From: Aldrovandia affinis
Lineage: Eukaryota > Chordata > Actinopteri > Notacanthiformes > Halosauridae
Length of the DNA stretch: 64,000 bases
Direction of reading: 5' to 3'
Assembly (NCBI GenBank): GCA_029706075.1
Contig: JAINUG010000005.1
Span: forward strand, 8,525,501-8,589,500
In this document: piece after piece, positions 1 through 38,778 of the stretch
Layout of the letters: each line of letters begins with the position of its first letter
Position numbering within the stretch: position 1 is the stretch's first letter
The notes under the pieces: model-generated
Database searches by the model: none
Told to the model about the DNA's origin: nothing
What the model saw: the letters and a program-made list of their open reading frames with translations, nothing else
Made by a program: the position numbers and the translations under genes

Positions 1-118
1 CCCAAGGTATTTAAATGAATCCACAATCTCCACATCAGTTCCATTAATACTCCTCCTATGAAAATCTACCACAAGTTATTTTGTTTTGCTAACATTTAAA
101 ATAAATGTTAAACAGCTG
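1..118 (-). pseudogene. LINE reverse-transcriptase fragment, cut by the window edge
   Basis: Read on the minus strand, the first ~115 bases encode a stretch typical of the RT domain of L2/jockey-type LINEs: a KTK-x-LVVDF block followed by VEIVDSFKYLG. A stop codon replaces the usual glutamate after KTK, so the copy is dead. The element runs off the left edge, so its length and 3' end cannot be judged. The family-level assignment is inference from these two motif blocks only. Confidence 0.6.
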
Positions 119-3100
119 AGCAAAAATTTCAAATAAATAACAGCGAACATCATTCACAGCTAGATACAAGCAGTCAGAGTCCTTTGTTATTCCCCTGCCT
201 GGTAAAAGGCTTTGCTGTCACTTGATGCAGACACGACCTTAATGTCTTTTGGTACGACCATGCAGGGCCGCACACAGCCTACTACCTACTCTGCATCGTG
301 CATTAAAATCATCGCTGAAGCTTAAGTGCTTTTTATAGGAATGTTTAAGACTTCTGCCAATGAGACTGAGTAGGAGCACATCCAGATGTCCAGGTAGGAC
401 TCTGGCATGCTTCTTCTGGCATGCTCCTAATATGAACTTGACCACCTGGGACCACCGGAGAGCAAAGGGAGATAGATGGTCTGCATGAGACACATCCTGT
501 AATTTCATGCTCAAAAAGCCAATGGATTCTGTCCCATTATCTAGAGCCTACTGTTTGTTTTTTGGCAGATCTCTCCTCCCACTGTTACCTACATGTTGGG
601 GTGAAAAGTGCAGTGGGCTGCACGGGTGTGCATCCGTCCGACCACAGGGCTCCAACACACAGTGATAAGAGATAAGATGTGAGGCAACCCTAGTCATTTA
701 AAATCTGTGACTCATTTATTGCTGCGAAAGTGAGGGTAGGACATCAAGGGATTTTCCTTTAATCGCACCTCTCGGGAATGTGAGGTTGTAGAACAATACT
801 CCCGATGTGTTCCTTTAAAAGGCAGGGAAACAAAATTGGCAGCACGCTGACGAAAGCCTTATCCTAATTCAACAGGAATCGGGGGAAATTACGGAAAGCT
901 GAGAGTCATTTGCATCTGAAAAAAGTTCATTTCTCCCTTGTTATTAACTCCGAACACAACCTGTATCATTTATTTATTTCTTCATTTCGAGATTCTCTAG
1001 CCCCTAAGTTGAAGATCTAAGCCCAAATTTCTGGTCACGGACGACTAATCACAGTAGGGCCCCAGAACTGGAACCACAAACACATCATTCACAGCATTGT
1101 AAATCAGGACCTCAAAGAGCATCGTTTAGCCTGGAGCTAAGATTGCTTGTTTATCAGATGGTGCCTAAGTCTAGGATGGAAAAGTTTTATGGCATGTGCT
1201 TATGCAGACAGGCTGGCTGCTGGGAATTTTTTGTGTGTGTGTGTGTGTGTTGGGAGTTTTAATGACTCCTGACTACCAGGTCTTGGTTTCCCCTCTCAAA
1301 CTTCCAGAGATAACCAGTCCTTTCATGTCAGGGAGGAGTGGGCGTTTATACCAAGGGGTTTATACATGCCAAGTACTGATGCAGTACAGGTTATGGGACA
1401 GTTTAACATGCTCTAATTGCTTTTAATATATTGTGAAGATATGAGATCGTAGCTGATGTAAGTGGGGAAAAGGGCTGGGTTTCTTTATATTGTTGTCATG
1501 TGCCGCCTAATAGAAAGCACTGAGACTCAGATTTGCTTTCGTACAGGTAATCTTGCGCTGCGTGCCTAAAGGATACTATATATTAACAAAAATATAACAT
1601 TTACACTTTTTCAAGCGGACTAATATTTTGCTGCCTCTTTACTTGTTCTGTGATATGTTGCTTGGAGTGTGACAATGCTAAACCCCAGATGATGCATCAA
1701 ACTCACAGTGACTGATTCTGATGTCTCAATAAGCACCTGCCTGGTGCACAACATGTTACACCTGCACTTCTAGACCGTTCCACAGCCTCCCCGAGAGCTC
1801 GATACACCTGCCTGCTACATTTTTCATTGCCACCTGCTGGCCAGTAAACATCATACATGTTTAATTACAAACACTTCTAGGCCCTGGGGAAGCATTTTGA
1901 CATTTTTGCAGTTCACATTAACACCTTCCCTTTGTCCGTTATTGTAGAATGCAGTTCCGCTCAGTCCTCATGACTACATGTAGAAATTGTGATATTTTTG
2001 TATTATTATTATACAATACAATAACAATCTGGCAGTTTCACAGCATTAAGAATGAGACAATACAGTGTAAAAAAACCTGTGGCATACACAACTACATAAA
2101 AGGCAACATATGGATATTTTTCTATTAAAATACAAATCCCAAAGTGGAACAGCTCCAATATGAAGCATAATCATAACAGCTACAGATGAGTTTATGGTTT
2201 CAAGCATTCTCAAGTACATGTGGAATGCTGACTGCCCACCTTGACACCTGCCATGAGACAGTGAGAAGACAATAACATCAGTAATAAACAGGAATTGACG
2301 CTTGGGCAACTAATACCTTCATATCAGAGACCTAGCTAACACAAATACAGTGCAAGCAAAGTTACACCTCATGCAACATAAATCATACCATTATGAGAAC
2401 CATAACTTGGAAGTTTTTTAAACATTGTTAATAAGTGAATGGCTATAGTCTAGATGTACTGTAGTATGACCAAGGGGTTTTCTTCTGTTCTGCCACCTCA
2501 GCAAGGGTCGGGTCTGGACGGGTCACTCTTAGCTCTTTGCCCGATACCATTCCCAACATGGCCAAAGGCATTCCAAGGAGAAGTAGGTGTGTTTATTGTA
2601 GATATTATGAAATGAGGATGCTCTTGTTCAGCAAAACGTAGTGCAGCAAAGCATGGTATTTTTGTTATATTGTGTTTGCTGCAAGAGGCTTTAAAGAATG
2701 AGTATATGAACTGTATATAAAATAATTTTAATATATTGACAATTAGTTGTGTTCACTTAGGTGCAGGTGCCGATTAATTGTTGACTCTATTACTGGTATG
2801 CTGCTGTGGAGTCTGCAAACAAAGGGCTTGGGGTACGCAGTGCTGCTGAACACTGAAAGAAGGCGGTGGGCATTCTAATGCAGTCTGGGAAAATGAGTTC
2901 ATTAAAGTATTTCTTAGATAGTAACCAAACATGATGAAAACTCTTGATTTCCTGAAATGAGAATTTTTAAACACAGTTGAGATGAACTCAGTATTGCCAA
3001 AATGACACTTGAATATGAGTTACGTGTTATATCAATGCCACCAACGTAAGTATATTTGACTAGAATTTGAGTACAGTGGTAGTAACCAACAAAATATCCA

Positions 3101-3980
3101 TCAGAGGAAAATGTAAAATGCAGATGAGCAGTAACATAATCACTTTGTGATCTGTTTCCGTGTTCCCTTTTTTCAATCATTTTCTATGACTGTTTTCAAG
3201 CTTGCTTCCACAAGTACAACACGTTTCCTCTCATAAAAACATGTCAAACACTTCCCTGTCATGCTGAAACAGGTGGCACATAGGGATGGAGCTGACCTCT
3301 GACGGTGCTTGAATTGATCTGAGGTGACGTATGCCTGCGGAAATAAAAAAACCCCACAAAGAACCATTTTACTGGAAGCTCATGTTCTGCAGGGTGCATT
3401 TGAATGTTGCTAGTGAAATGTGGGGCAAACCAGTATGGAGCCTATTTTAAAGAAGCAAACATAGGCAGCAAATGTTCTCGTTTATCAAAAAGAAGCGTGT
3501 CCAAATCAGTTGGTGTTTTAACGTCTTGGGTTCATTCACAGAATTGTTTTATCTCATGTCACCATATGTACAAAACGTTGAATTTTTACAGCAAATAAAT
3601 GTTTTACTTACTTAGCTTAAATGTTATTGCAAACTTTACATACAGATGTTGTATAAACGTGTTTGTTTACAGTGCACACACATTTCCGCAACTTTAAGCT
3701 AAAGAATTAAATCTTCCTTTGTGAGATTGGTATCCATTTTTCCATTTCCATTTTTCCATTTTTCGCAGATTTTCTAATTAGGTCACAAGGGGTATTTTGT
3801 CATCAAGTTGTTTCGCTGAGCTTCTTCCTGTATTATTGTTGAATGGGGCAAATATTTCTATGATGCATTGTGTTATAAAGCATATAACTGCATTTCAAAT
3901 CTGATAAATAAATAAAATTGTCTTCAACTAATGCTTTGATTAATCGGTACATTTAATAGATTAATCATTACAGCCATAAC
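119..3980. other. Intergenic, no gene recognised
   Basis: No open frame here resembles a known protein, and none carries convincing splice signals. The stretch holds a TG microsatellite at 1,232-1,250 and otherwise AT-rich unique-looking sequence. By position it lies in the region 3' of lunapark. Confidence 0.5.
1232..1250. repeat. (TG)n microsatellite
   Basis: About nine uninterrupted TG units. Confidence 0.9.
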
Positions 3981-3983
3981 ATA

Positions 3984-5143
<1,160 letters not shown>

Positions 5144-5790
5144 TAAGTATAATATCTGGGCACTGTATCGTTACTGCAGGACAACACTAACATGATTGAC
5201 TGTACAATTGAAGAATTACTTAGCGACTTACTTACTTACCTTTTATATTTGCAAACATAACAGAAAAATCTATAGAACATAATGATTATTTATTTCGCTA
5301 CAAGAAAAATCAGGGATTAAAATATCAATGGCCCAAGCTCAATTTTATACAATTGCACTGCACTGTGCCACTCAAACAAAAACTAAACTGCGTTTGCACG
5401 AGCACTAGTTTTATTGGTATCAAAATAGGGCCCTATGAGTTAATACTGGATATTATACTGAATGAATAAATCCTTTCCTTCCTGTACAGAGAAAGTCTGG
5501 AATAGATTTTTGTTCATTAATTAATTAATGAATTAATTTATGGTCCAATGGCAGCCTCTCATTGTTTTCAATATAGACTTATTTTGTTCTTGCTCTTCAC
5601 AAATTGTAACAACAAAATTATGAAAAAAACTCAAGAAATGCATAATGCTTTTTGCATACGTTATGCAAGTCATTTGCATGCTTTTCAAAATACACAACAG
5701 TTAGCCAAAATGTATGCACACCCTTGCAGTCAGTTATTTGTGTATGAGTTTGATGACATAAAGCTAACTCTTTAGCTAATTACTAATCCT
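5144..5790. other. Intergenic, AT-rich, nothing recognised
   Basis: AT-rich sequence without repeat structure or coding signal that I can recognise. Confidence 0.4.
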
Positions 5791-5799
5791 GTAGTATTT

Positions 5800-6560
5800 T
5801 TGAGGTTCAGACACATCTCAGGAGGGGGTTGTTACTCCTGCTTCTGCCATAATTTATCCAGCTCCGTTAAATTTCAAGATTTTTTGATGCATTTTAGTGG
5901 TTGAAACAAAAACCTTCCATTTGGCCAAGGTCTTTGATTTCCGATGGGCCGTCCAGAAAGTTGTATTTGTTCCCACTTAATTTTTTCTGTGTAGACTTGA
6001 AATCATGTGTTGCTTGTATCATATCATAATCAAGTTGCAATGTACATTTCTTACCAATCTTGAGCAAGAGGGAACTGCCATTCAACACTGACTGCATGAA
6101 TCTGCTGCTCATGGAAAGAGTTTCAGTGAAGAGACTTCTTCTGAAGCCACAACACAAAAAGAAGAAAACAAATTGATCAAACTGCACATTAGCAACACTA
6201 GTTGGGACTATGTTTTGTGATGAAACTAAAATTGAGCTTTACGGATACGCATCAGCAGTGACTTTGGTGCAAAAAAGGTGAAGCTCATTTTTAAAAGACT
6301 ATTATCCCCTCTGTGAAATACAGAGGTGTGCTTGTTTTGCTTAAATCTACCAGTACTTGGGCCATTGTTTTAATCGAGACAAAGAATGGACTCTGGAATA
6401 TATGGAATATATAATGGAATATATGCTGTACCAGGACATTTTGTTTGAAAAGCTTGTTCTTCAGACATAATGATGCCTGACTTTTTTTGGAAATATTTTT
6501 TCATTAGATATGTTCACCAAGAACAACAATTACTAACACTGAAGGTGGGTGAGAAAAAAT
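5800..6560 (+). mobile_element. Highly decayed Tc1-like transposon
   Basis: Near 6,205-6,260 the plus strand encodes CDETKIELYGYASAV, the block carrying the first catalytic aspartate of Tc1 transposases. Surrounding sequence gives only scattered similarity with stops. I see no terminal repeats, so the boundaries are approximate. Confidence 0.5.
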
Positions 6561-7201
6561 GCAATTGTAAAAAGGGTTGAATTAACAGATTACATTATGT
6601 GTATATGTGGCTAGGGCGTGACTACATTGTGGCCAATGAGATCGTCCATCTTTTCCCCTTTAACAAAACCCTGCATTTATGCTGGGCGGACAGCTCATTA
6701 TGACAGGATGACAGAAGTACTTTTCCCAGGAGGAGAGGAACATACTGAGAGGTTCTGATTGTAGCTTGCAGCCAGTGTGTTTTGTGTGTGAACCTGTGTT
6801 GCGTTGCTATTTATCATTCCTGGTAACCAATATTTATTTTCCTCTCCTATCTCTCTCCCAACCACAATTGAAAGCGGGCAGAAAATAATAATACAAAAAT
6901 GACAAATAAAGTTAAAAGTAGTGTAGGGCATCTTAGCGTTAGATGATTTTAATTATTTAGAGTCAATAACAATTAGTAAAATTCCAAATGAAATGCAGGT
7001 CTTGGGTGGTGTTGTGCCCAACAATGACCACTATGTAGCTAACGCCCTTCTACTCAGAGAATGCCGTAAGGCGAGTTAGTTATAAAGATGTGACTTTGGA
7101 AAGAAAGAAATGTAATAAAAAAGTAAATCCATAATTCCAGTCAATTTAAAAAAAAAGATATGAGTCAGTACACTTACACTCAACTTACACTTACACTTAG
7201 G

Positions 7202-7311
7202 TCTATGGTTGGCCAAAGGGCTCATAATAACAAACACATTTTAACCTTTATCAAACGCATTTGTTAATATCGAACACGTTTAATATTATGAGCCCTTTGG
7301 CCAACCATAGA
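7202..7311. mobile_element. Short palindromic MITE
   Basis: Arms at 7,202-7,228 and 7,285-7,311 are perfect 27-bp inverted repeats (arm begins TCTATGGTTGGCC) around a 56-bp AT-rich centre. It has no coding capacity. The size and structure fit a miniature inverted-repeat transposable element. No target duplication is obvious, so the superfamily is undetermined. Confidence 0.65.
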
Positions 7312-7749
7312 GGCTGTATTCCCACTACATTTTACCACACTCTTCTTTGAATCTGCTTTCCTGTCCAGCATCAGGAGCTGAAAAGCCTATACCCCAGTTC
7401 TTTCCAAAATTGTTCAGCACAACCCCAAAAGCAAAACAAATGTCAAGGCCATTTGATTTCCATTCTAAACCAGAAACAAATTATATACAGAGAACCAGCA
7501 CACTGGCTCTGTTTACAAACATTCCAGAGGGGCTGATGGGAAGTGGAGTCCAGAACATATCAACATATGGAACAGAGGCTTGTTTCAAGAAAGCAATATA
7601 CAACAAAGAATACTACTTGTACGGAGAAGAGAAATTGAACAGTTTGAAATTGTTTACCTGCAATAAATGTTAGTTAGTTTGTCTTTATATGTGTCATTTG
7701 TCAGTAACTGCTTGCACGGATCACATTACATACATGCATTTTGTATGTA

Positions 7750-8239
7750 ATGTGCATTATGCACATAAATAGTCATTATTAAGCCTTCTCTTTGATGTTC
7801 AAAATTTAGGGAACAAATATGTCGGATCCCAAAAATAGTGTGTAGTTTTGTCGCCTGGCATGGTTTAGGTCCACTCAACCCCTTAGAGGGCAAGGTAAAC
7901 GCCAATGCCTTCATCCTATGGTGAAGCATGTCTTCCAGGATGGCAATGCCTCCATCCACAGGGCATGAGCGGTCACTGAATGGTTTGATGAGCATGAAGA
8001 CAATGTAAACTACATGCCATGGCTGTCTTAGTCACCAGATCTCAAACCAATGGAACATTTATGGGAGATTCTGGAGTGGCGCATGAGAATACCAAATAAT
8101 GGAATATCTCATGGAAGAATGGTGCTGCATTCCTCCAATAGAGTTTCCACACATTTGTAGAATCTATGCCTCGTGGTGGCCCAATGTTTCATTAAGACAC
8201 TTTATGTTGGTGTTTCCTTTATTTTGACAGTTACCTGTA
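7750..8239 (+). mobile_element. Tc1/mariner-like transposon, 3' half
   Basis: The plus strand holds a decayed transposase C-terminus: around 7,935-8,090 a DGNASIH block, then VTEWFDEHEDNVNYMPW, a stop, and SPDLKPMEHLWEILEWR, which resembles the last catalytic segment of DDE transposases. The element ends with the terminal repeat at about 8,212-8,239, the same terminus found at 44,405 in the opposite orientation. The 5' half is absent. Confidence 0.75.
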
Positions 8240-8919
8240 TATGTATAATCATGGTTATTCACAATTACATTGTTTTGTTTATAGCAAAAAATATATATTT
8301 ATGTTCACATATTGGGATGTAATTCCAACAGAACTTATTGCGTGTTCACATGTTCATGAGCGCACGCATTACTACTGAAACAAAGAGAGGCAGGGGAATG
8401 ACAATGATTGTCGAGGGGCTGATTTCTCTAGTAAGTGCCATGCACACGCTTTGTGACGTGCATTCATGGGACAAAATGGGAAATGGGAAATTATTTCTGA
8501 AGCTCAAAAAAAAAAGAGAGACAAAACATTTGTAGATATTAGTTCGCATGTCACCTTTTTTTGTGAAACAAGCCTGTGAACAGCATACGGCAGAGTGAGC
8601 TGAATGACCCCTTTAAAGAAAACACAATGACTGCACCTGTAATGGGGTTTTTAGTTTTTTAAAAGTGATGTACCAAATTAACATTTAACTGTTTAGGGAA
8701 AAATCTAAACGGTTGCGAAATTCACATTGTTTAAATGATAAATGATTAAAATCCCTATCTAAAAGTCTAAAAAGATATGATTAAATGTTTACAACTATGC
8801 CATTATGTCCTTTGTCACTTTATGAATCAATTAATATTGATATGAATAGCAAACAGCACTGTTTAAATGTTAAGACAAGCATCAGATGCATTGCATGAAG
8901 TGTTGACAGCAGGAATCGT

Positions 8920-9106
8920 GAACTCCAGTCCTGGAGGGCCACAGTTTCTGCAGGTTTTTTGTGGTTTCCTTTCAATCAGCAGCCAATACTGGCCTTTCAA
9001 AACAAGGTGCATGGACTCTAGCCAATCAATGACTTAAATTAAGCACTTAAGTGCTTAAACACACCAAAAAAAAAATGACACTGCGGTTCTCCAGGTTTGG
9101 AGTTTG
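8920..9106. mobile_element. Non-autonomous inverted-repeat element (~190 bp)
   Basis: The left end (8,920-8,944, ACTCCAGTCCTGGAGGGCC) is repeated in inverse at 9,081-9,105 with several mismatches. The interior is non-coding. This ACTCCAG...GGAGT type is common in teleosts. I take it as a DNA-transposon derivative of unknown superfamily. Confidence 0.6.
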
Positions 9107-10199
9107 AAATCCAATACATTTTATTTTATTGCATTTTTATATCTTATATTTATTGCATTTGTATTATAAAGCAATTTATAATACAAAAAACTTAAACAGC
9201 TGTAAATTATTTAATGAGAGCAACCATAGATATTAAAGAGTTTATAAAAAACTATTGTTGTATTATACAGTTAAAATGCAATTGGAATCTTTAGTATTAC
9301 TGATCAGTGAGAATATACTGTATATGTTATAATTGATGTTGACAGATCTGATTTTCCTTAGGCCATGTTTTTACCTACTACATCTCTTAATATCAGTTAG
9401 TATTGAAGTCCAATGTTTAGAGGCTTTTATAGAAAATTCTGATATGCAACAAATATTCTATTGCATTTTGATATAGTGCAATCAGCTCTAGAGGCGGCTC
9501 TTGAAAATGTGTTGGAACAGTTAACACTTGAGAGTGTGGTGTGGTTCCCATAAATGTGAAAGTTAAGGGCCTGAGCCCAATTCCAGTATATCCAAAAACA
9601 CAATGGGTGCTGTCATTGTTGAAAAAACACCTACTTAGTCAAATCACTCACAACCATTCACAAAAATGAAGACACACAAATGTAGCCTTACCAGGCTGTT
9701 TTTCATCCCTGCTGAGTTAATGAATACCTTTGCCCCCCTTCTCCTCCCCACCTCCTCTACTGCTTCTATCAGTTTAATTGCTCTGTGTGATGGGTGCCAG
9801 AGGTGGGGGGCTGGGGGGGTCCTGCCCCTAGCTTCTGCTGAACAGCTAGGCTGGACTGCATCCCACAAAAGGAGCAGTCAAACCCTGTATGGCCACCAAT
9901 AACACGGATTTCATTACTGGAGTTTCCTGATTGGAATGATAGATGCTGGGCTTGGGTAGACGAAAAGGTCGCCTGGCAAATAAGAGCGCGTTGTTCCTGT
10001 ACCTCACTCGCCCTGCGGTACATATCACCAAATTCAAAGAGCACACACTACAATAAATGCAGTTTCATTTTTTAATGAGCATTTGCTATTTAACTTGGGA
10101 GTACCAAGGGGAGATCTTGGCCAATCAATATTATAGTACACTTCCCATTCTATCAATTTAGTGTCTGCTTATGGTCCATTACTGGGTCTAATAAATTGG

Positions 10200-16200: not shown

Positions 16201-16201
<1 letters not shown>

Positions 16202-26140: not shown

Positions 26141-26149
26141 AGACAGTCA

Positions 26150-27300: not shown

Positions 27301-28026
27301 TTCGTTTAGGTTGTTTTTTTCCCTCCAGTTGTTAACTGGATTACCCTCACTCTTGTGATATCCAGAATAAAAAATTGCAATTACTTGATATTTTTTTTAC
27401 AAGTTGACATTGGAAAAAAAAGGGTTGAGGGTGTGGGGGTATTTGTTGTTTGGGTAAATCTACAGTTCTGTTCCTCATTGATTTCCAATGCCTCAGCCGT
27501 TCACAGGCTCTTTACTGCCACCTCCTATGCAGTCAATATTCAGGAAATATTTATTCAGGGTTTCAGATATTATGCAAAGAGCCTGCCCTGCCATGGATGT
27601 GCTTTAAATCGCCAAACCATTTAAAAAGAGGGGTCGGAGGTTAAATGGGATGAATATCGTTGTGAAATAGGATGAACAAAACAACCTCCCATCTCCCTGA
27701 GGCCTTTTCAATGTCACCTCTTTATAATTGAAAAAAAAAAAAAAAAAAACAGGAGAGATTCTCACAGAAAAACAAAATACAATCAGGGGACAATCATTCA
27801 GGGTATCTGTTTAGTGTCTTCTATCAATACTGTTTCCAACTCGGAGTGTAATATTCAGAACAAAAGGCTCAAAGCCGACAGCTGAGAGAGAGAGATTCTG
27901 TCTGGGAGCGTCTGTGTCCTTGAAAGTAGGATCCAAGTACATGTGTTTGGTTTCATCTCTCGACACTACTGTTGCACCGAATGGCAGACATTTTTAAATG
28001 TATATGTATATATATATATATATATT

Positions 28027-28805
28027 ATGTGCCCCTTTAAAGTTGGGGAAAAACATAATATAGCGCATTACCTGTACTGTTCAGTTTTCAATAGGATTTA
28101 GGTCAGGGCTCTGACTAGGCCACTCAAGGACATTCACCTTTTTGTTTTTTAGCCACTCATCTTTTCTTTAGCTATATGCTTTGGGTCATTGTCTAGACTT
28201 TTTCTGTATTTTGCTCCATCCATTTTCCCTTCTATGCTAACATGTGCCCCAGTCCCTGCTGATGAGGAACACCCCCCTAACAGAATGCTGCCACTACCCT
28301 GCTTTGCAGTAGGGATGGTGTTCTTTGGGTGATGTGCTGAATTGGGTTTTCGTCAAATGTAACATTTTGCATTTAGGCCAAAAATGTCTATCTTGGTTTC
28401 ACCTGACCATAACACTTTTTGCCACATGGCATCAGAATATTCAGAGTAGTTTTTTTGCATACCTCAAACAGGACTGAATGTGTATTGTTGACACATGCAC
28501 ACATTGACCACTCTTTGTCATAAAGTTCTGTAGCTCCATCATAGTTGCCATTGGCCTCTTGGTGGCTTCTCTGATCAGTCTCCTTCTTGTTCGGTCATTC
28601 AGCTTGGATGGACTGATCTAGGCAAGGTCCTAGTGGTGCCATGCACCTTCCACTTCTTAATTACAGTCTTGAATATGCTCCAAGAGATATTTAAGGCCTT
28701 TGAAATCTTTCTGTATCCATTTCCTGATATGTGTTCACAATTTCTGAACATTAATTTTCACTTGGAAGTTGTAGGGTAAAATGTGTAAATAAAGTTGGAA
28801 AAAGT
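28027..28805 (-). mobile_element. Tc1-like transposon, left part, split by a LINE
   Basis: The reverse complement carries decayed transposase and flank sequence typical of the 'GTGCCC(C)TTTAAA'-ended Tc1 group, for example the inverse of TGGTCAGGTGAAACCAAGAT around the first catalytic Asp near 28,400. The sequence AGGGTAAAATGTGTAAATAA near 28,774 belongs to its subterminal repeat. It breaks at about 28,805 and resumes after the LINE at 30,389. The same family occurs at 32,672 and 48,665. Confidence 0.75.
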
Positions 28806-30388
28806 GTAGTATACTTCTATGGAATTCTTCCAGTACCACGTGCTAGTAAAGGGAAGCACAATTCCTGTATGGAGATTTAACACGTGGCTGAAAACCTGGT
28901 GTAGGAATGAGGAGTACAGGTTTATGGGGCACTGGGATTCCTTTTGGAACAGGGGTGACCTGTACAAGCGGGACAGGCTACACCTGAACCGGAGGGGTAC
29001 AGCTGCATTGGGCCAGCATATGTTTAGGGTAGCAGAGGAATACTTAAACTAGGGACTGGGGGGGGGCAGGGAGGAAAATTGGTGTAGTATTAAGGATAGG
29101 GAGGTACAGACTGCCCAGATGAAAGATACCAGGGCAGAGTATAATAATAACTGTAAAGATATCATTAATAAAGATCTTTTAGCCCATAATGTGAATAGAG
29201 GTGGTTCAGCACAGTTATGTGTGGAGGGGAAGGACAACATAGGTGTGAGTAAGTCTCTGAAGTTCCTGTGTTTGAATGCTAGAAGATTTTTTTTAAATTG
29301 AACTGGAGGCTGTCATGTTGAATGGGGGTTATGACATCTTTGGATTACTGAAACATGGCTTGGTGCAGCAGATAGGGATGAAAATAATGTGGAGGGGTAC
29401 CAATTGTTTAGGAAGGGTAGAACTAATAAAAGAGGAGGGGGAGTGGCCCTTTATGTGAAAGACAATCTTAATGTGCAAGGAATTCCAGGTATTAACTCAT
29501 TCATTCCTTGTGAGCACATCTGGATTAAATTACTGTAGGATGTAGAAAAATAGGATGAAAAAATAGGATGATAAATCTTTACTGGAGATTTTGGTTTAGC
29601 AAACAGTTTGGAATCGACTAAAATAATCCAAGATGATTTAAACAAAATCCAAGAATGGGAAGACACATGGCAGATGACATTCAATATTGCTAAATGTAAA
29701 GTTATGCATGTGGGAAATAAAAACATAAGACAGGAGTAATTTATGGGATGAGAAAAAATAGTAGGTGTTCAATTTGAAAAAGACTTAAGAATTGTAGTTG
29801 ATCAAAGTCTATCTGCATCTAGGCAGTGTGCTACAGCAGTGAAAAAGGCCAACAGGATGCTGGGATACATAGCAAAAGGTATTGAGTATAAATCAATAGG
29901 TTATATAAGAGGTTATATAATGCCTTTGTCAGACCTCACTTATAGTACTGTGTGCAGTTCTGGGCACCACACTACAATAAAGATATAGAAGCTCATGAAA
30001 AGGTTAGAAGAAGAGCAACTAAATTGGTACCTGGTATGAAAGGTAAAAGTTATGAGGATAGACTTAAGGCACTCAATCTATTTAAGCTTAGCAAACTGAG
30101 ACTTAGGGGGGATTTGATAGAGGTTTTTAAATTCCAAAAAGGGATTAAGAAAGTGAACTACCAAAGATTTTTTAAGATAAGTGGGGTCAGCAAAACAAGA
30201 GGCCACAGGTGGAAATTACTTAAAGTTAAATTCTGCACGGATATTAGGAAGTTTGTCTTTGCACAGAGAGTTGTCAATGCCTGGAACAGCTTGCCAGGTC
30301 AGGTAGCAGAGGCAAAAACACGTGGGCTATTCATGTTCAGCCTAGATGGGATGAAAGGCCTGTTCTGGTCATTATGTGTTCTTGTGTT
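28806..30388 (+). mobile_element. CR1/L2-like LINE, internally deleted
   Basis: Three parts of a non-LTR retrotransposon occur in order on the plus strand. The first is the end of an ORF1 with an esterase-like DRLHLNRRG motif (28,819-29,052). The second is the start and part of an apurinic endonuclease (about 29,245-29,535, with CLNAR and RGGGVALYVKDN). The third is the end of the reverse transcriptase and the C-terminal region (about 29,580-30,392). The main RT palm is deleted. The 3' end (CATTATGTGTTCTTGTG) fits this group. The element lies inside a Tc1. Confidence 0.82.
28819..29052 (+). pseudogene. LINE ORF1 C-terminus with esterase-like motif
   Basis: This 77-residue frame ends in GDLYKRDRLHLNRRGTAALG. 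The D-x-x-H pair resembles block V of SGNH/GDSL hydrolases, which some CR1/L2-clade LINEs carry in ORF1. The upstream catalytic serine block is missing, so the piece is non-functional. Confidence 0.65.
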
Positions 30389-30392
30389 TTAA
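29580..30392 (+). pseudogene. LINE reverse-transcriptase C-terminal remnant
   Basis: The first frame gives QDDLNKIQEWEDTWQMTFN and KCKVMHVGN, the region just after the RT palm motif. After frameshifts, a 146-residue frame (29,952-30,392) gives the QFWAPHYNKDIEAHEKVRRR thumb-like segment and the LRLRGDLIEVFK and FAQRVVNAWNSLP blocks of CR1/L2-type ORF2. The catalytic palm lies in the deleted part. Confidence 0.8.
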
Positions 30393-30453
30393 TTTCAGGC
30401 TGTAAGGGAAAAAAACTTGACATTTTTGAGAAGGGAGTTTAAAAGGGCACTGT
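30389..30453 (-). mobile_element. Right end of the split Tc1
   Basis: TTTTAATTTCAGGCTGT and the terminal AAAAGGGCACTGTATA resume the Tc1 sequence broken at 28,805. The undisturbed order of these blocks is seen at 32,720-32,806. Confidence 0.75.
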
Positions 30454-30530
30454 ATATCATATTATAAAGTTTTAATCTTCTTTCACATTACAATGTTTCT
30501 GTATGTTGCAGCAATATAATATAAATACGA

Positions 30531-30534
<4 letters not shown>

Positions 30535-30579
<45 letters not shown>
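30535..30579. repeat. (TG)n microsatellite
   Basis: About 22 uninterrupted TG units, the longest simple repeat in the window. Confidence 0.95.
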
Positions 30580-30581
<2 letters not shown>

Positions 30582-31780
30582 GGTTCTGGTTTTTGGGCTT
30601 TATTCATTTTTAAATTTGGCCATTTTATTATTTTTCATGGATGACTTAAAAGTTTAGTTTATTGATGCTCTCACTTTTAATAAAATTAGATGTGATTTGA
30701 GGAAATATATTTATAATTTTCACTTTAAACAACTCATTAAACTTATATATTGCTGTTTATTTTAAATATTGTAAATGTCCATTCCTCAAAGTGCATTTGT
30801 TTGTAGTAGTATTGATTGTAAATTATTTAGTCTCATGGCTTGTTTACAAAAAAAATCATGCCCTTTCCTCCACATCACTTTCAAAGTTAGGAACATTTCA
30901 GAGTTCTGAACAACCTCCATTCCCAATGCGTTTGTATGTCAGAGGTTCTAATGTAATATAAATTTGAAAAAACACAGAGCCAACCTACATGATTGCTACA
31001 TGTAGGAATCATGGGCTAGCATTGCTCTGGAATAATAATAATAATAAACTTATACTGTGTCCCACCTTTGGTTCCCAAAGGTTTTGCATTATTGTTATTA
31101 TTATTATTTTGCATTATTGTGTGCATGTTGGCAAAAAACATGCACACAGAAAGTCGGAATAGCACACAGTTTACTGACAGGGCCACATGTTTTTTTTAGT
31201 CACATCAAACCAAAAAAATGATTAGCCAGGCTACAAGGTGGTGGCTAGGTAATGAAAAATATTTCAGTACAGAGCAAATAAAAATATTCCATACTTTGAT
31301 CATGAACAGCTGACTGACACTAATTCCTCACTTAATGAATCCTGTCTCTTGCATGAAACACATTAAAACATCCTCTACTGTTAAAGCATTTTTTCTCTTT
31401 GACCTTGCCCTGCTTCTGCTGACAGCCATTTTGTCTGAAGTGCTTCCTTGTGGCTGTACTCACTGTACTGGACTTACACTCTTCTGCATCCAAACAAATA
31501 CCCAAGTTTATTATTTATTTGCTTTATTCAATACTGAATAATTTGATATATATATATATATAATTCATTTTTGCCCAAGATGTCATTTACCCCCCTCTGG
31601 TTCTATTTGTACTTTTTTCAAAATGTTTGTGCTTCCTCTTGATCCTTTAAATGAAATGTGTGTGTTCTCCTCATTGTTTAGCCGTCTAACCTATTGATTT
31701 TCTCTAGTTTGGGGTCCAGGTTAGCTAGATATTAGGACATGAATGAATGTTGGATATGCCACATGAAAAAAATGTTACAC
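30580..31780. other. Intergenic, nothing recognised
   Basis: AT-rich sequence with AAT/ATT simple repeats near 31,027-31,045 and 31,092-31,108. No gene is seen. Confidence 0.4.
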
Positions 31781-31799
31781 ATTTTTCCCCCTTTTCTAC

Positions 31800-32480
31800 G
31801 AAGTTGCAATGCCCAATCATATTCTTTTTTTTCCTCCCAATTTAGTAACCAATTACACCCTCTATTTGTTTCAATTTATCCACTACACACGAGTCCACCG
31901 CTCATCTCTACAAGGCAAGCTAATTCTCAGAGGGCAGTGAACACTACTTCCTTCGAGATGGAATTGGCCCACCCACATTCTGGAGACACCCTTACGTTCT
32001 TCACGGCGAACTCGAGCCGGCTCACCCTCCCCCCTTCCCCTGGGGCAGACAGCCAAATGCCGCCCCCGATCGGGGCTAATGACCAGGGCCGGTCTGGTAG
32101 ACGGGTTTGGAACCACGTCCCTGACAGGCAGCGCACACCATATCGGACCAGCCAAAATACGGTGCGTTAGACCGCTGCGCTATCAGCCCCACCCAATCGT
32201 ATTCTAAGCCATTCGCTGCAACCTCCACTGTCAATTTGTGAGAGCGTAGACAAGCGCATGCTCTCCTCTGAAACACGATGTCAGCCACCGCTTCTTCTCA
32301 CACTGCAGTCTTGAAGTTTATCTTGCACAGACATGAGTCGGAGGAAGACGCTTTTTGCGCAGCTTTATACCGGCAGACTGTGGACACGCGATTGACCAGC
32401 GGGGGTAGCTGGCATGCAAAACTTATTTACTCTGAAATGCACTACCCAGCAGTGGAATCCTCTAGGAGCAGCTGATTTTA
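31800..32480 (-). mobile_element. tRNA-derived SINE-like or composite dispersed repeat
   Basis: On the minus strand from 32,190 the sequence GATAGCGCAGCGGTCTAAC resembles a tRNA box A, and GTGGTTCCAAACCCG near 32,115-32,101 resembles a box B. The GC-rich body at 31,995-32,110 recurs at 22,137. Short similar segments (CCCAATC-ATATTC) at 31,811 and 32,195 hint at a composite. Long open frames here reflect GC content and match no protein I know. Confidence 0.5.
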
Positions 32481-32671
32481 TACTGAAGTAATCAGAATCA
32501 CTACAATTGAACACGGCTGGAGGCGAATTAGCTTGGTGTGTGATCTGGAAGGTGATTGGTTACCCCTGAGCTAGTTTACAATTGGTATGATAAGTGGGGT
32601 GTAGACTTATTAATCCAAGTTATTGTAGTTTATTATTTTTAATTAACGATCAGAATTTTTTTTTTTTTTTC

Positions 32672-32800
32672 ACTTGGAAGTTATATGGTAAAATGTGTAA
32701 ATAAAGCTGGAAAAAGTCTGATTGAATGTTTTAATTTCAGGCTGTCAGGCAACAAAAGGTGACATTTTTTGAGACGGGGTGTAAACTTTAAAAGGCACGG

Positions 32801-32806
<6 letters not shown>
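32672..32806 (-). repeat. Solo terminus of a Tc1 (same family as 28.0 and 48.7 kb)
   Basis: The subterminal sequence GGTAAAATGTGTAAATAAAG, then TTTTAATTTCAGGCTGTCAG and a terminal AAAGGCACGGCATATA, are colinear with both halves of the split element at 28-30.5 kb. No transposase sequence adjoins it. Confidence 0.7.
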
Positions 32807-32833
<27 letters not shown>

Positions 32834-32900
32834 CTATGTATAGAGAGAGGGTAAGAGGCAAATCCTTCATAAATTGTAAAAAAAAAAAAAAAGGGCACCG

Positions 32901-32931
<31 letters not shown>

Positions 32932-32982
32932 CTATGTATAGAGAGAGGGTAAGAGAGGCAAATCCTTCATGAATTGTATAAA
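32791..32982. repeat. Tandem duplication (~100 bp x 2) with CA tracts
   Basis: Two head-to-tail units share a GGCAC-CGCATATATA start, a CA tract (about 32,807-32,833 and 32,908-32,931), CCTATGTATAGAGAGAGGG, an AAATCCTTCAT segment and an A-rich end. They differ at only a few positions. Each unit begins with the last bases of the Tc1 terminus. Confidence 0.85.
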
Positions 32983-33288
32983 AATTTAAAAAAAAAGGCT
33001 TGCCTATGTTGTGCAGTCCATGAAATTACTGTGTTTGTACTAAAGGATGGTGGTAGATTAATCTTTTCTTCAAAATAAAGGTTTCATAGCTCAGATTTTT
33101 CAATGGTCCTATATGATAATCCAGATGGGACCTGATGGTTTTAGGAGGGCATATTGACCCTTGAATATCGCTATTGCACATAGTGGGAGAGTGAAATCAC
33201 AGATGGAACTAGCATAATAGGCTAACAAGGAGACATGGTGCACACTCATGCTCTCTGCATCCAGTGTACCTGCTGATGTCCACGGATC

Positions 33289-33517
33289 TATAGGTAACTG
33301 CCAAAATAAAGGCAACACTTATCTGTAACATGGGGGGATACTCAAACAACCCATTGCCTGGGTTAGGAGAGACCCAGGCAGGGCGGTGGGGTGCTCGTTG
33401 GAAAGAGGTTGGCCGGGCCTATCCGCAAATACCGACCATGGAACCCCCAATGGACATTTAGTGGTACTGCGCCCATTTAAAGGATCCCACATTTACTCAA
33501 GGGTTACCTTTGTGCAC
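33289..33517. mobile_element. MITE of the CAGGTAACTGCC family
   Basis: The left terminus (33,289, TAGGTAACTGCCAAAATAAA) is clear, while the right one near 33,495-33,517 is eroded. The interior matches, in inverse, the MITE at 39,113-39,305, sharing GTTGGAAAG and GGCCTATCC in order, so the two form a deletion-derivative subfamily. Confidence 0.65.
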
Positions 33518-33519
33518 TG

Positions 33520-34870
33520 GTGTCAGAATCAGCCTGGACAGTTCAGGTCAGGCTTTATACCTGTATTCCAAGATTGTGCTGGGAATCACTTTAAAGATGA
33601 AAGCATAGCTGAGTAACCGAGTAGAGCTCAAGCTCATTTCTACCAGAAAGAGTAAAGTTACTTAAAAACACCCTGAATGTGTTCTAAGGCTGCTTTTGAA
33701 TACCTAGGGCTGTGTGAGGTGTCACATACCAAGCAAGGAGGGCTGCTGGATTTCATGTCAACTTCTGTTCTTCATTATTTAACTAGTCCAATAATTGACT
33801 AATAATTGACTAATGTCAGTCCAATCTGGTATTTTTGCCAAATGTTTTGATTGGCTCATGCATGACAGCTGATATTCTTGTCTCTATATGAAATACTTTA
33901 CAGTGGTCTAATCTATGAGTGAACCAACACTGATGCATACAGCTAATCAGCCATTTGAGCCAAGGTAAGTGGTGGAACCAAAAACCTGCATACCCCTGCC
34001 ACTATCATGTGTAGTCAATCAGACTCATATGAACCAATCGAAAGACTTGGCCCTCCATAGCAAATGCTATGATTACTTCAGTTCATTCACCACTTAGTAG
34101 CTACAGCATAAATGCTCAGCCCGTTTTGAGGTTCACAAGGTCTCCAATTCTCCCCTTCACTATTTTTTCAAAAGTTCATTTTCAGTCTAGTGCTCAGATC
34201 TTGCCTTTTCAAACTGTAAATAAAAAGGAGATAAAGAGTGGGGTGAGATGCTGTACCCAAACTGTGATTTGTGGTTTACAATTGTAATTCCATTCAAATG
34301 AGTGCATTCTTAGTGTTTGATGACCTTTTGTCAAATATATTACTGCCACTCAACTCTGTGGCATTTAAAGACCAAGCAGCTGAAAATTATAGCTGCTGTA
34401 GGAAACATTTTTTTATTCAAATATCATTAAAACGAACATGATAAATCGGTAGCGTTGAGAGAAAGAGCTTCTGTGAGAGAAATTCAGTGCTCCCAACCGT
34501 GTTTATGGTCTCCAATTCTGCATTGTGAATTTATGTCTCTGAACGATTCGGTCCGAATCTTTTGTTTGTCAATGATTGGTATCAGAACTTGGCTCTGAAT
34601 AGTCCATCGTGGCGATGCCAATGCCACAGACCAGTCAGAGCCATCTAGTGGCATTATTATGCCATTAACAATGCATTTTGCAATACAACAGTGGTTGTTT
34701 GGCTTGGATTGGACGGTTACCTGATAACTGATTTACATCCATTGCAGCTAGGATGCATTATTACACACACCGCTTTGAATAGGCCAAAAACAATCGTTCA
34801 GAACCTATTGTCTGGTGTAAGAGGTGTCTGTGAGCTCTTATACAAACCCTGAATTTGATTTTAATGCTGC
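33520..34870. other. Intergenic, nothing recognised
   Basis: Unique-looking AT-rich sequence without coding or repeat signals that I recognise. Confidence 0.4.
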
Positions 34871-34879
34871 TCCAAAGGA

Positions 34880-35310
34880 GATGGAACTAGTAGAACGGCA
34901 TGAGGACTATAATGATGCAGATGACAACATCCCACGGTGAACTCTAATATTCATAAAGAAACCTGGCCATGCAAATTACTTCTGCGACACCATCTTATCA
35001 TACATATTACATTATATATAAGCCGTCTTTAACGGTTTGTCAATTCAGATTGGCAGGGGAGCTCTTTAAAGCTAAGTAATGGATTGTGTATTAAAGAAAA
35101 AAAAAACTGGTTTTGGATTATCGTTTATCACAGGACGGTAAAAACGATGGAATTTTCTGCAGATGCATCGGGATGGCATTAAGGGGCTCTTTTAAGACTG
35201 GGGGGAATTGTGAAACGTTTGCCCCTAAAGGCAATAAGAGGAACAGTGACAAGCTGGGTTGCACTTGTCTATTTTACTTATTTGGAGCCTCGGTTTGATA
35301 TTCCGCCCAA
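34880..35310. promoter_or_regulatory. Candidate conserved non-coding element
   Basis: Repeat-free stretch with ATGCAAATTA at 34,969 (octamer/POU-like), TTCATAAA (CDX/HOX-like) near 34,951 and TTATCGTTTATCAC near 35,120. No coding frame. Regulatory role inferred only. Confidence 0.28.
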
Positions 35311-36085
35311 ATAGCCAGGTTATTTTCCTCCAGGGTTCAGGGGGCCACAGTGTTTCATTTCTTCAGAAAATTGTTTCTCAGGATTTCAATCTTGGGCTGC
35401 TAGATATGACAAAACACAATATCAAGAACACTTATGTTTTTTATCTGCCATATTTTCAGGGTATAAATAAAAGATCAGTATAAATTTGAGTCAAGTGCCC
35501 CAGAATGCTCATGTGAGAGATGGATGCGAAAAGAAATATGGACCTTGGGATTGCCCCATTGTACATTTTCATACTGAATTCAGAATTACTACTGTGCCAG
35601 GCCATGTATGCCATTTGTCTTCCCTGGAAATCAATTAGCACCTTGCTGATAAAGCTAAGCAGATGAAATTCCTCTCTTGTCCAGGTACAATGTAACTTAG
35701 GGTCTTGGAAACCTTTGTTTATTTCCGTGCCGTACATCCTTGTGCGAGTGCGTTTCAGATGAGATTCGTAATGTCAGTGTGAATGACAGATTGTAGCTTC
35801 TTAAAGATAGCAAGCTCTTTTCTTTGAATAGGACATGCTGATTGGTCACAATGATGAATCAATGTCAAAGGATATTCCAATTTTGTTTTTGCATATTAGA
35901 CACAAGCAGCAAACATCCAATACCTGAGAATAATTTGAGGGTAAACACTACTGGTTTCTGAAACACGCCTTGCCATGTGGCAGGAGACAAATAATGAATC
36001 TTTTTAAATTTCATGCACATCCTGTAGAGCAATTTTGAGTGTGTATATTGTATGGAACAACAAGGTTATTTATTTTTTCTTTCTT

Positions 36086-36109
36086 TTTTTTTTTTTTTTT
36101 TTTTTTTTC
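36086..36109. repeat. Poly-T tract
   Basis: An almost pure run of about 24 T between 36,086 and 36,109, without an adjoining SINE or LINE body that I can recognise. Confidence 0.85.
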
Positions 36110-36379
36110 AACCGTTTGAGAAAGGCAGAAGATGGATTTGATGAAAACTGTATCATTTCTCTGTAAGATGTATTGCCTTGAATTTGGATCTAATCTCGCT
36201 CCATCTGTTCCTTCAGTGAAGAACTCTATGAAGGTGCTTTTGTATTGCGAAACAACTGTCTGAAACAAAAAAATTGCAAGGTTTACAATAATGAAATCTC
36301 AAAAAAGGAGAAAATTATTTTTTTCTAGGTAGTGCAGTACCGATGTCAAATAAGATGAATGTAATTTGACGGAATGGCA

Positions 36380-37200
36380 TGATGCTGACAGCAAACCATG
36401 TCGCAGTGGTCAAAATTATTGAATGTGAGTCTTTACACCTTCAGACACTTAACATGCACTCTACAGAGTAAACCACAGTGCAGGCGCATGACTGACAAAA
36501 CAATCACCTAAAAAGATTCAAACATTATCCTCTTAGCCACTTTTTTTTTTCTCCCTTTTCACACTTTTCAGAGGTCAAACTGCATCAGAGCGTGGTACAA
36601 TTGGGCCAGTTACTGTTCATGTCACATTGATGCATTACCGAGCACAGAGGGTCACGTCTGTGTAAACATACATTATCAAATCCCAGAGAAATGTATCGGA
36701 TAGTGACCTCTCTGGCTGTGGCCAGTGAACATAAAGAAAAAACGGGACAAAATGGCTGGGGCCGGTGGAGATGACACTCCCTTTTTGCAAATGAAGAGGG
36801 TCAAGCAATCAAGACCGGCCGGGGGTGGAGTGTTAGCGCCATTATCTAACACTGTCCGAAATGATCAATGAGCTAAAATAAAATGATCACAAGCTAAAAC
36901 AGACGGGCTAATGAAAATGGAATGTGTTTTAACGCGCCCTTTTTTTGCCGTCCCCCCGGTGACATGGCCAGATAGAACACTGACAGGGTGGCAGCTGGGA
37001 GATAAATCAGCCCGCTAACATGTCTAATACCTCATTTCAACACGGGACAGCCTTTTACTGCCGAGTAAAAGATTCGGTCATCCATACGGGCTAGCGAGGA
37101 TGAGGAGTGACCTGCAATTAAAGTTTACTAATGTGCATACAGCAGACTGGCATGAGGCGATCAGGATATCACGTGTCTGTAAATATTTATATATTTTTAC
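36380..37200. promoter_or_regulatory. Candidate conserved non-coding block
   Basis: About 800 bases without recognisable repeats, with balanced composition and several homeobox-type and GATA-like words (TGATCAATGAGC near 36,863, AGATAAATCAGC near 37,001). It is the closest such block to the 3' end of lunapark. No coding frame. Function inferred only. Confidence 0.3.
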
Positions 37201-38525
37201 CCAGGTTGTGAAAAGGACCGTTTACAGCTGTAAAAAATATCTTGCGTAAGTATATTTTGCAAATGAAGTGGCGCCTGCTTGCGTATGCATAAACATTCAG
37301 CCATTTTAATCGCCTCTCTTTGAGCTGTCGCTGTGTTAATTGAGAGGTGATGGTTCTCTTAAACGAGCATCCATCTGTACGCTCGACCACTTCTGCACTC
37401 AACGCCTTGCCTGTCAATATGGCGTTGTCCTGTGTTACTCCCCACCCTATTCATCCGCCTGGTCCCTGGGGGGCGGGTGGACTCTGAGGCGGGGTTAACA
37501 AGGAACAACGTGCACAACAACGTGTGCTTACAAAAGCCCTTGTTCCCCATTACTGCAAAATAGGCAAAGAGGGTCATTTCCGGAACAGAAAAGGTGATCA
37601 GGGGCAGAGGCAGTGATCTTGTGACAGATTCAGTCTCAGATTCAGCGTGTAGAATTTAGGAAGAGTTACAGGAAATGCAAACTACACCCATTTTCCGTTG
37701 AGGTTCACGCACTGTTTATCCAACGAATCTAGAATCAAATGGAATACCTCAAACGTGGAAGCCTTAAGAGGATGTTACATGGAGCTTTGGAATTAATCTG
37801 CATTTATATACTGGAATTTCATTATACTGCACTATAATTTCAGTCACTACCTGAGATGCAAGACCTGAACATGAATCAAATAATCTGCAGAGCGGACCTG
37901 GAAAAGGTTGACATTAATAACAAGAGGGAAGGGTTTATAACACTTGGTTTGCACAAATCAAAGGTTGCAGCCTAAAACATGAAAATAACTCATTTTATTT
38001 CATTTCAAACGGGAATATTTAAAATACACACATAGGCACAGAGGATGGTCGGCTCTTTCTACCTTTTTTCTTAGCAGTAATAAATAAAAGCATTTTTCAT
38101 GGTATTTCCATTACTGTGCTGTTACTGGGCAAACATGAGGATGCCCTCACTATGCCATAAGTACCCAAAACATCCTGACAAGTACTTTAAGAAAATGTAC
38201 CATATCATTGAATTAAATACCTATCTACTATAATGCTTAAACACCTGGCAGGATCATTTCTATGCAATGTTCTATGTAACAGTATATATATATGTAAAAG
38301 ACATCCTGTGAGACACAAAGAAACAAAACCGTACTTGTGTTGCAAAACTTTTCTGCTCTACTAAAAAATAAAGAGGAAAAAAAAAGACACAAAACCTATT
38401 TTCATGATCACTCAGAAAGACATTCCTTTGCTTGGATCATTATTGCTTTATGTTCAGAAGTGCTGTAGGTGCATATGCATATGACATGTAAACTCCTGGT
38501 AGAGTGAAACATAAGAGCCCATTCT

Positions 38526-38531
38526 TTTATT
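38526..38531 (-). terminator. Candidate lnpk polyadenylation signal
   Basis: TTTATT here reads AATAAA on the minus strand, about 250 bases past the lnpk stop codon. Other AATAAA words occur nearer the stop (38,757) and further on (about 37,995), so the site used is unknown. Confidence 0.3.
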
Positions 38532-38778
38532 ATTAAACTAAAAAATGTATATACATATACACACATATATCCCTTTTATCCAGACAATACATGAAATATT
38601 TTAGCTTAGCTACTTTCAAGAACTGGCACTCTCATGTAGTGTCTTGATTAAACAGTGGTAAACCAGGAATAGATATTTTTAAAATAACATGAGCAAATCA
38701 AACTATCACAAGAAAAATATCTGGACCAATTTGAGTGTGTTGGCACCATTATTATTTTTATTTTTTTCGGGGGGTCTG

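What the first reader, a model, noticed from the sequence alone, without database searches (positions are those of the whole stretch)
1..38778. Exon-free 38 kb on the 3' side of lunapark: candidate homologue of the HOXD 5' regulatory desert
Lunapark reads leftward here. In jawed vertebrates EVX2 and HOXD lie on its 5' side, while the desert beyond its 3' end carries limb, genital and neural HOXD enhancers. I see no gene in the left 38 kb, and repeat-free blocks with homeobox, POU and HOX13-type words stand out from transposon-rich DNA. If the order is conserved, this window covers the proximal part of that regulatory domain in a fish.
Basis: partly seen in the sequence, partly recalled or inferred. 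Interest (0 to 1): 0.7.

Follow-up and report, generated by a model that had tools for sequence, protein, structure and literature searches.

The report
Duplicated HoxD enhancer desert in fish
The gene-poor DNA beside lunapark in this fish is very probably part of the switchboard that controls the posterior HoxD genes, and the same genome keeps a second, clearly related copy of it beside a second HoxD cluster in which hoxd13, one of the main targets, was not found.

Summary
Position and gene order hold. lnpk reads leftward, stop codon 38779-38781; the next genes found to the right are evx2, hoxd13, 12, 11, 10, 9, 8, 4, 3, 1 and mtx2. I found no protein-coding exon in 1-38778 with a limited query set; the bases next to the stop are probably lnpk 3'UTR.

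No second species was available, so I compared the genome's own second lnpk-evx2-HoxD locus (contig C2111). The two lunapark deserts share collinear blocks across the left 38 kb and 28.7 kb further left: 27 HSPs, 13.2 kb, chain score 5871, against at most 833 for three control stretches and 0 for shuffles. Seventeen blocks (7.5 kb) lie in the window. They look non-coding and avoid mapped repeats. A 2.3 kb stretch holding two of them recurs genome-wide only at C2111, bar one 40-base match.

Best reading: the lnpk-proximal part of the HoxD 5' regulatory landscape (C-DOM/5DOM), a known kind. Enhancer activity, tissue and identity with named mouse elements are untested. The word claim is only partly supported: PBX/HOX- and MEIS-type words yes, HOX13-type CAATAAA and POU not clearly.

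The parts
38779..59047 (-). lnpk (lunapark) coding exons found: stop codon 38779-38781, last exon to about 38958, 41565-41657, 41995-42066, 42541-42672, 47868-48095, 49575-49652, 56573-56764, probable first coding exon (MGAVVSRWR) at 59047
   Evidence: tblastn with a recalled human-like LNPK and reading of frames; Pfam PF10058 at 41995-42066
37945..38778 (-). probable lnpk 3'UTR stretch, weakly alignable to the other copy (58% with the last exon); AATAAA on the minus strand at 38526 and 37994, not matched in the other copy
36486..37154 (.). conserved non-coding block (71%); cores 36570-36701 and 36767-37010; four conserved RGGTCA-type words
   Evidence: genome-wide only at C2111 apart from one 40-base match
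34856..36232 (.). conserved non-coding block (66%); core 35223-35577 at 85%
34272..34389 (.). short conserved block (72%)
28543..28710 (.). weak block (64%), 19 bp overlap with a mapped repeat
27548..27672 (.). weak block (65%, E 0.002)
26278..27291 (.). conserved non-coding block (72%); cores 26498-26740 and 26949-27227, the latter with conserved TGATTTA, TTTATGACAG, ATAAATCA and two more TGACAG/CTGTCA words
25970..26197 (.). conserved block (63%); an open frame runs through nearly the whole block in both copies, but without codon-phase bias
25188..25604 (.). conserved non-coding block (77%)
25054..25126 (.). short block (73%)
23154..23466 (.). conserved non-coding block (74%), longest exact run 47 bp, TAATTA twice conserved
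15798..17711 (.). largest conserved non-coding block (1.9 kb, 69%), five cores
12690..12954 (.). conserved non-coding block (72%)
11497..11922 (.). conserved non-coding block (80%), two cores
11289..11450 (.). weak conserved block (62%)
10730..10786 (.). short block (79%)
1651..1815 (.). conserved block (71%)
414..465 (.). short weak block (77%, E 0.005)
1816..10729 (.). 8.9 kb spacer against 0.47 kb in the other copy; holds multi-copy repeats at 4033-5151 and 7854-8244
28711..34271 (.). 5.6 kb spacer against 1.1 kb in the other copy; dispersed repeats at 30339-30457, 31829-32194, 32667-32999 and 33889-33983

Best explanation
The left 38 kb is the lnpk-proximal part of the HoxD 5' regulatory landscape (C-DOM in mouse, 5DOM in zebrafish) of a teleost that keeps two HoxD loci, presumably from the fish genome duplication. 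It works, most likely, as an array of distal enhancers: HOX, PBX and MEIS proteins and other factors bind the conserved blocks, and the blocks contact evx2 and the 5' hoxd genes across lnpk inside one chromatin domain. By analogy with zebrafish and mouse they drive late posterior expression (cloaca and genital ducts, tail, fin, spinal cord). Shown here: gene order, two related loci, collinear conservation of blocks without codon bias, little overlap with mapped repeats, and that one 2.3 kb stretch recurs only at the other locus. Inferred: enhancer activity, target genes, tissues, chromatin contacts, age of the duplication.
For: Gene order lnpk-evx2-hoxd13...hoxd1-mtx2. Two lnpk loci in the genome; the second, on C2111, lies beside evx2 exons (610253-611068, minus) and homeobox hits from 631444 to 678881, the first two read being hoxd12 and hoxd11. 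Collinear chain of 68.8 kb against 37.4 kb of the second locus: 27 HSPs, 13,211 bp, score 5871; the reversed sequence and 3 of 3 shuffles give no HSP; three stretches of the right flank give plus chains of 508, 833 and 527 and minus chains of 734, 346 and 453; the observed minus chain is 674. 27 of 28 desert blocks show no codon-phase bias and 69 of 344 gaps are multiples of three; two lnpk exon blocks give 5/25/7 (p 5e-5) and 3/6/16 (p 0.004) as positive controls, while a third with 13 mismatches (7/3/3) does not. The stretch 34856-37154 recurs genome-wide only on C2111, bar one 40-base match on C2. An atf2-type gene, the usual far landmark, lies at C2111:478242-478553, about 100 kb beyond that copy's lnpk stop. 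TGATNNAT (11 of 17) and TGACAG (6 of 14) are conserved between copies more than permuted words in the 28 blocks.
Against: No alignment to another species was possible, so homology with named elements (GCR, CsB, CsC, Prox, GT2, islands I-V) is untested. Constraint does not prove enhancer function or HoxD as target. No atf2 match lies on C2022, so the far boundary on the window's own contig is unknown. The genome-wide search with 1-9000 did not list C2111 (40 of 16,641 candidates scored). CAATAAA is sparser in the blocks than outside; the unbiased word scan gives nothing that survives correction (best AATAAA 13 of 24, p 1.4e-4 among 941 words); several tested words show no conservation (GLI-type none found, TBX-type 0 of 5, CTCF-type 0 of 5). 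No fin or limb specificity is shown.
Confidence: 0.86

Rival explanations
1. The blocks are constrained regulatory DNA, but serve evx2 and/or lnpk itself (spinal cord and brain expression) rather than the hoxd genes.
For: evx2 and lnpk are the nearest genes and both are found at both loci, whereas hoxd13 was found only on C2022. Three blocks lie within 4.6 kb of the lnpk stop.
Against: In mouse and zebrafish the corresponding landscape controls posterior Hoxd genes (PMC7185996, passages; review PMC13121165, passages). The C2111 locus still holds hoxd12 and hoxd11. The chain reaches about 67 kb from the lnpk stop.
Confidence: 0.25
2. The blocks nearest lnpk are 3'UTR, alternative exons or a conserved lncRNA, not enhancers.
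For: The 34.3-37.2 kb blocks lie 1.6-4.5 kb after the stop codon on the same side as the 3'UTR, and the stretch 37945-38853 aligns weakly (58%) between copies.
Against: 37155-37944 has no chained match; the three AATAAA words between 37.9 and 38.8 kb are not matched in the other copy, nor those in 34.2-37.2 kb; no codon-phase bias; most blocks lie more than 10 kb beyond the stop.
Confidence: 0.08
3. C2111 is a recent segmental duplicate or alternative haplotype, so similarity reflects youth, not constraint.
For: Only two lnpk loci were found and the block order is the same.
Against: Outside the chained blocks no collinear match reaches E 0.01 and spacings differ up to 19-fold (8914 against 468 bp); 14 of 40 fourfold-type sites differ in three lnpk exons; each locus carries its own evx2 and Hox array; a Hox13 N-terminus was found on C2022 but not on C2111.
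Confidence: 0.02

Closest known systems
HoxD centromeric/5' regulatory landscape of mouse (C-DOM: Prox, GCR, GT2, islands I-V)
   Same: Position beyond evx2 on the 3' side of lnpk (mouse order recalled); gene-poor as far as tested; many separate conserved non-coding elements
   Different: Not aligned here; duplicated in this genome; enhancer activity untested
5DOM of zebrafish hoxda
   Same: Teleost HoxD locus with a 5' landscape; by review PMC13121165 (passages read) its deletion removes hox13 expression in the cloaca and has a minor effect on hoxd13a in fins
   Different: Zebrafish HoxDb has lost its protein-coding genes (PMC3286462, passages), while here a second HoxD locus with evx2, hoxd12 and hoxd11 keeps its desert
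Cichlid HoxDb locus
   Same: lnpb lies beside the second HoxD cluster (PMC2080641, passages)
   Different: Cichlid HoxDb holds only hoxd9b and hoxd4b, with chrna1b and lnpb upstream; here evx2, hoxd12, hoxd11 and further homeobox hits remain, with an atf2-type gene about 100 kb beyond lnpk
Eel HoxD clusters
   Same: PMC3286462 (passages and section 9 read) reports two HoxD clusters and names HoxD12b and HoxD1a
   Different: Species here not identified; eel HoxD12b primers match both copies imperfectly (2 and 5 mismatches on C2022, 4 and 4 on C2111)

Membership tests
HoxD 5' regulatory landscape (C-DOM/5DOM) | Lies on the 3' side of lnpk, with evx2 and HoxD on the 5' side | tested here: met
HoxD 5' regulatory landscape (C-DOM/5DOM) | Gene-poor over tens of kilobases | tested here: inconclusive
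   No tested neighbour gene in 68.8 kb and four ORFs without a Pfam family over cut-off, but the query set was short and no full annotation was made
HoxD 5' regulatory landscape (C-DOM/5DOM) | Array of conserved non-coding elements | tested here: met
   against the second copy in the same genome only
HoxD 5' regulatory landscape (C-DOM/5DOM) | Sequence homology with named elements (GCR CsB/CsC, Prox, GT2, islands I-V) or gar/zebrafish counterparts | not testable with these tools
   No other vertebrate DNA is held; three key papers are not in the library
HoxD 5' regulatory landscape (C-DOM/5DOM) | Far side bounded by atp5mc3/atf2 | tested here: inconclusive
   atf2-type gene on C2111 about 100 kb away, none on C2022; the ATP synthase c search did not complete
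HoxD 5' regulatory landscape (C-DOM/5DOM) | Contacts with and enhancer activity on posterior hoxd genes | not testable with these tools
   needs 4C, ATAC or transgenic assays
Teleost ohnologous HoxD pair (3R) | Second lnpk-evx2-hoxd locus with a reduced gene set | tested here: met
   hoxd13 not found on C2111, though 611-629 kb of it was not read
Teleost ohnologous HoxD pair (3R) | Split dates to the teleost genome duplication | not tested
   no tree with other fishes; 14 of 40 fourfold-type sites differ

The most novel reading that the evidence does not exclude
Both copies of the HoxD 5' landscape have stayed under constraint since the teleost genome duplication although the C2111 copy lost hoxd13. 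The enhancers would then be held by hoxd12, hoxd11 or evx2 (or by divided tasks between the copies), and the pair would be a natural test of which blocks need hoxd13 as target.
Probability: 0.5. Interest if true: 0.55.

Novelty: new member of a known kind. Interest (0 to 1): 0.45.

Why it matters
Whether digits arose by co-opting an older cloacal control region is a live question that rests on this landscape. Zebrafish, the fish in which it was deleted, has lost the protein-coding genes of its second HoxD cluster. A fish with two conserved landscapes and unequal gene sets lets one ask which blocks depend on hoxd13 and which on hoxd12, hoxd11 or evx2, and the block coordinates given here can be cloned directly.

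Tried and rejected
The genome-wide DNA search with 1-9000 was swamped by repeats (40 of 16,641 candidates scored, C2111 not listed) and was replaced by a direct comparison of the two lnpk loci. Eel HoxD12b primers did not assign either copy to eel 'a' or 'b'. CTCF-like words: 17 in 294 kb against 9, 2, 8, 2 and 7 in mononucleotide shuffles, including two perfect ones at 1829 and 34640, but none conserved in the blocks (0 of 5), so no boundary claim is made. The ATP synthase c search did not complete, nor were searches with two other block stretches. Hintermann 2025, Schneider 2011 and Gehrke 2015 are not held. The global alignment of the lnpk 3' side misplaced the last exon; its values for 37.2-38.9 kb are not used, and the BLAST block and the check replace them. 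POU words: in all 28 blocks ATGCAAAT is conserved 2 of 4 times, more than most permuted words (rank 0.03), but both lie left of the window; none is conserved in the window blocks. Dropped before the motif counts: the block overlapping the last lnpk exon (37945-38853) and the blocks to its right. Rejected: recent duplication; coding origin of the blocks.
Full report
Setting. The window is G000:C2022:8525501-8589500 in a genome of 1.22 Gb in 2576 contigs. Lunapark (lnpk) is on the minus strand; the stop codon is at 38779-38781 and coding exons run up to about 59047. The next 200 kb to the right contain evx2, hoxd13, 12, 11, 10, 9, 8, 4, 3, 1 and mtx2 in the canonical order. A run of N lies beside evx2, so part of it cannot be read.

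Is the left side empty? None of the queries (LNPK, EVX2, nine HOXD homeodomains, MTX2, ATP5MC3, ATF2, CHN1) matches below E 0.1 in 1-38770 or the next 30 kb left. Four ORFs of at least 120 aa lie wholly left of lnpk and reach no Pfam cut-off. Of 348 ORFs of at least 45 aa only these four were scanned. A full annotation was not possible. The bases just left of the stop are probably lnpk 3'UTR: AATAAA on the minus strand at 38526 and 37994, and weak 58% similarity of 37945-38853 to the other copy.

A second copy. The lunapark zinc-ribbon model finds two loci: the window and C2111:583191-583265, minus. C2111 also has evx2 exons at 610253-611068 (minus) and homeobox hits at 631444, 638192, 645843, 649733, 665806 and 678684 (plus) (150 of 280 candidates scored, so the list may be incomplete). 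The first two are hoxd12 (81% to the HOXD12 query) and hoxd11 (96%). The Hox13 N-terminal model finds five loci, one on C2022 and none on C2111 (6 of 6 candidates scored). I take hoxd13 as probably absent there; the stretch between evx2 and about 629 kb was not read. I call C2022 copy A and C2111 copy B without assigning them to the published a/b names. Seven contigs carry five or more homeobox hits, which fits a teleost. Species and date were not determined; the teleost genome duplication is the natural origin but is inference.

The deserts align. Copy B left of its lnpk stop (about 579139) was compared with copy A. With 30 kb fetched left of the window the collinear chain reaches window coordinate -28665, the edge of what I hold of copy B. 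At E up to 1e-3 it has 27 HSPs, 13,211 bp, score 5871, against 674 for the minus strand. The reversed sequence and three of three shuffles give no HSP. Three stretches of the right flank give plus chains of 508, 833 and 527 and minus chains of 734, 346 and 453. At E up to 0.01 and left of 37.9 kb there are 28 blocks, 17 of them (7543 bp) in the window; four of the 17 are weak (E 0.005 to 9e-5: 414, 11289, 25054, 27548). Cores, defined as merged 100-column windows of at least 80% identity, number 15 in the window (3047 bp, merged identity 0.77-0.85). Four core regions were aligned separately; in 23154-23466 one exact run is 47 bp.

They look non-coding. 27 of 28 desert blocks show no codon-phase bias in mismatches; one left of the window has p 0.03, about what chance gives. 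69 of 344 gaps are multiples of three. Two lnpk exon blocks give 5/25/7 (p 5e-5) and 3/6/16 (p 0.004); a third, with only 13 mismatches, shows 7/3/3 and is not significant. A few short blocks have an open frame through their whole length, 25970-26197 nearly so in both copies, but without phase bias.

Repeats and uniqueness. Sixteen of 17 window blocks have no overlap with mapped dispersed repeats; one has 19 bp. An insertion would itself break a block, so this is not an independent test, and the repeat map is a lower bound. Spacers differ strongly (8914 against 468 bp; 5561 against 1092 bp). One stretch, 34856-37154, holding two of the 17 blocks, was searched genome-wide: it hits itself, C2111 in three pieces and one 40-base stretch on C2. 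A search with 1-9000 listed repeats and did not list C2111. The other blocks were not searched this way. Three lnpk exons differ at 14 of 40 fourfold-type sites, which argues against a recent copy.

Words. I tested 30 words against permuted words in all 28 blocks, window and 30 kb left of it together. Conserved in both copies: TGATNNAT 11 of 17 (permuted 26%), TGACAG 6 of 14 (19%), RGGTCA 10 of 20 (16%), CAGCTG 4 of 8 (17%), TAATTA 4 of 9 (21%), ATGCAAAT 2 of 4 (24%), CAATAAA 3 of 5 (19%; permutation rank 0.07). Not exceeding: among others TTTACGA and TGGGTGG (none present), the TBX-type 0 of 5, CTCF-type 0 of 5, LEF-type 1 of 5. No correction was made for 30 tests. In the window blocks alone the conserved counts are TGATNNAT 9, RGGTCA 6, TGACAG 4, TAATTA 3, CAATAAA 2, ATGCAAAT 0, and CAATAAA is sparser than outside the blocks (0.27 against 0.51 per kb). 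An unbiased scan has AATAAA on top (13 of 24, p 1.4e-4 among 941 words), not significant after correction. Core 26949-27227 combines conserved TGATTTA, TTTATGACAG and ATAAATCA, words that I recall as HOX, PBX and MEIS types.

How it probably works. In mouse the corresponding landscape carries Prox, GT2 and islands, is bound by HOX13 proteins, and contacts Hoxd13 (PMC7185996, passages read). In zebrafish, by the review PMC13121165 (passages read, citing a 2025 paper not held), deleting it removes hox13 expression in the cloaca and has a minor effect on hoxd13a in fins. With a Tetraodon BAC holding the 5' landscape, hoxd11a, hoxd12a and evx2 are preferentially expressed, in proximal mouse limb (PMC3897358, passages read). 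I infer that the blocks here are enhancers of evx2 and 5' hoxd genes, acting across lnpk. Cloaca, tail and neural use is at least as likely as fin use, so the finding should not be sold as a limb region.

What is new. The kind is known. The added point is that two landscapes persist in one genome and that copy B keeps the blocks although no hoxd13 was found beside it. On C2111 an atf2-type gene lies about 100 kb beyond lnpk; none of the nine ATF2-query matches is on C2022. Published CNS work on teleost HoxDb covers the cluster up to lnpb, in cichlid with only hoxd9b and hoxd4b (PMC2080641, passages read). My library searches (capped listings of titles and abstract starts) showed none on two retained 5' landscapes; this is no proof of absence.

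Limits. One genome only; no expression, chromatin or cross-species data; gene absence rests on a short query list; genome-wide uniqueness was shown for two of 17 window blocks; the age of the duplication is not measured by a tree.

Noticed in passing
right flank, window coordinates 137093 and 171429: hoxd8 and hoxd1 are both present in the C2022 cluster; PMC4166920 (passages read) lists both as lost in Pantodon.
   Followed up: partly
51514-52227: 237-aa open frame with Pfam HTH_Tnp_Tc3_2 and DDE_3 matches over cut-off, a Tc1/mariner-type transposase inside the lnpk gene.
   Followed up: partly
62910-63051 and 63601-63742: Two neighbouring SINE-like copies, each a tRNA match followed by a UnaL2 LINE 3' element match.
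   Followed up: no
36572-37108, also 12934 and 25201: Nuclear-receptor-type RGGTCA half-sites conserved in both copies, four of them within about 540 bp; label recalled.
   Followed up: partly
41790-42086: Conserved sequence extends about 200 bp into the intron beside lnpk exon 41995-42066; PMC7185996 (passages) reports HOX13 binding in an Lnpk intron in mouse.
   Followed up: no
right flank, beside evx2: A run of N abuts the evx2 exon, so part of evx2 cannot be read.
   Followed up: no
C2289:3394508-3394959 and C2111:478242-478553: Two atf2-type loci match the ATF2 query best, and none of nine matches lies on C2022; the window's own contig may have lost or moved this landmark.
   Followed up: partly
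1829 and 34640: Two perfect CTCF-core-like words on the minus strand in the desert; not inside the conserved blocks.
   Followed up: no
32790-32999: 98-bp unit tandem repeat, 2.1 copies, with an inner AC run.
   Followed up: no
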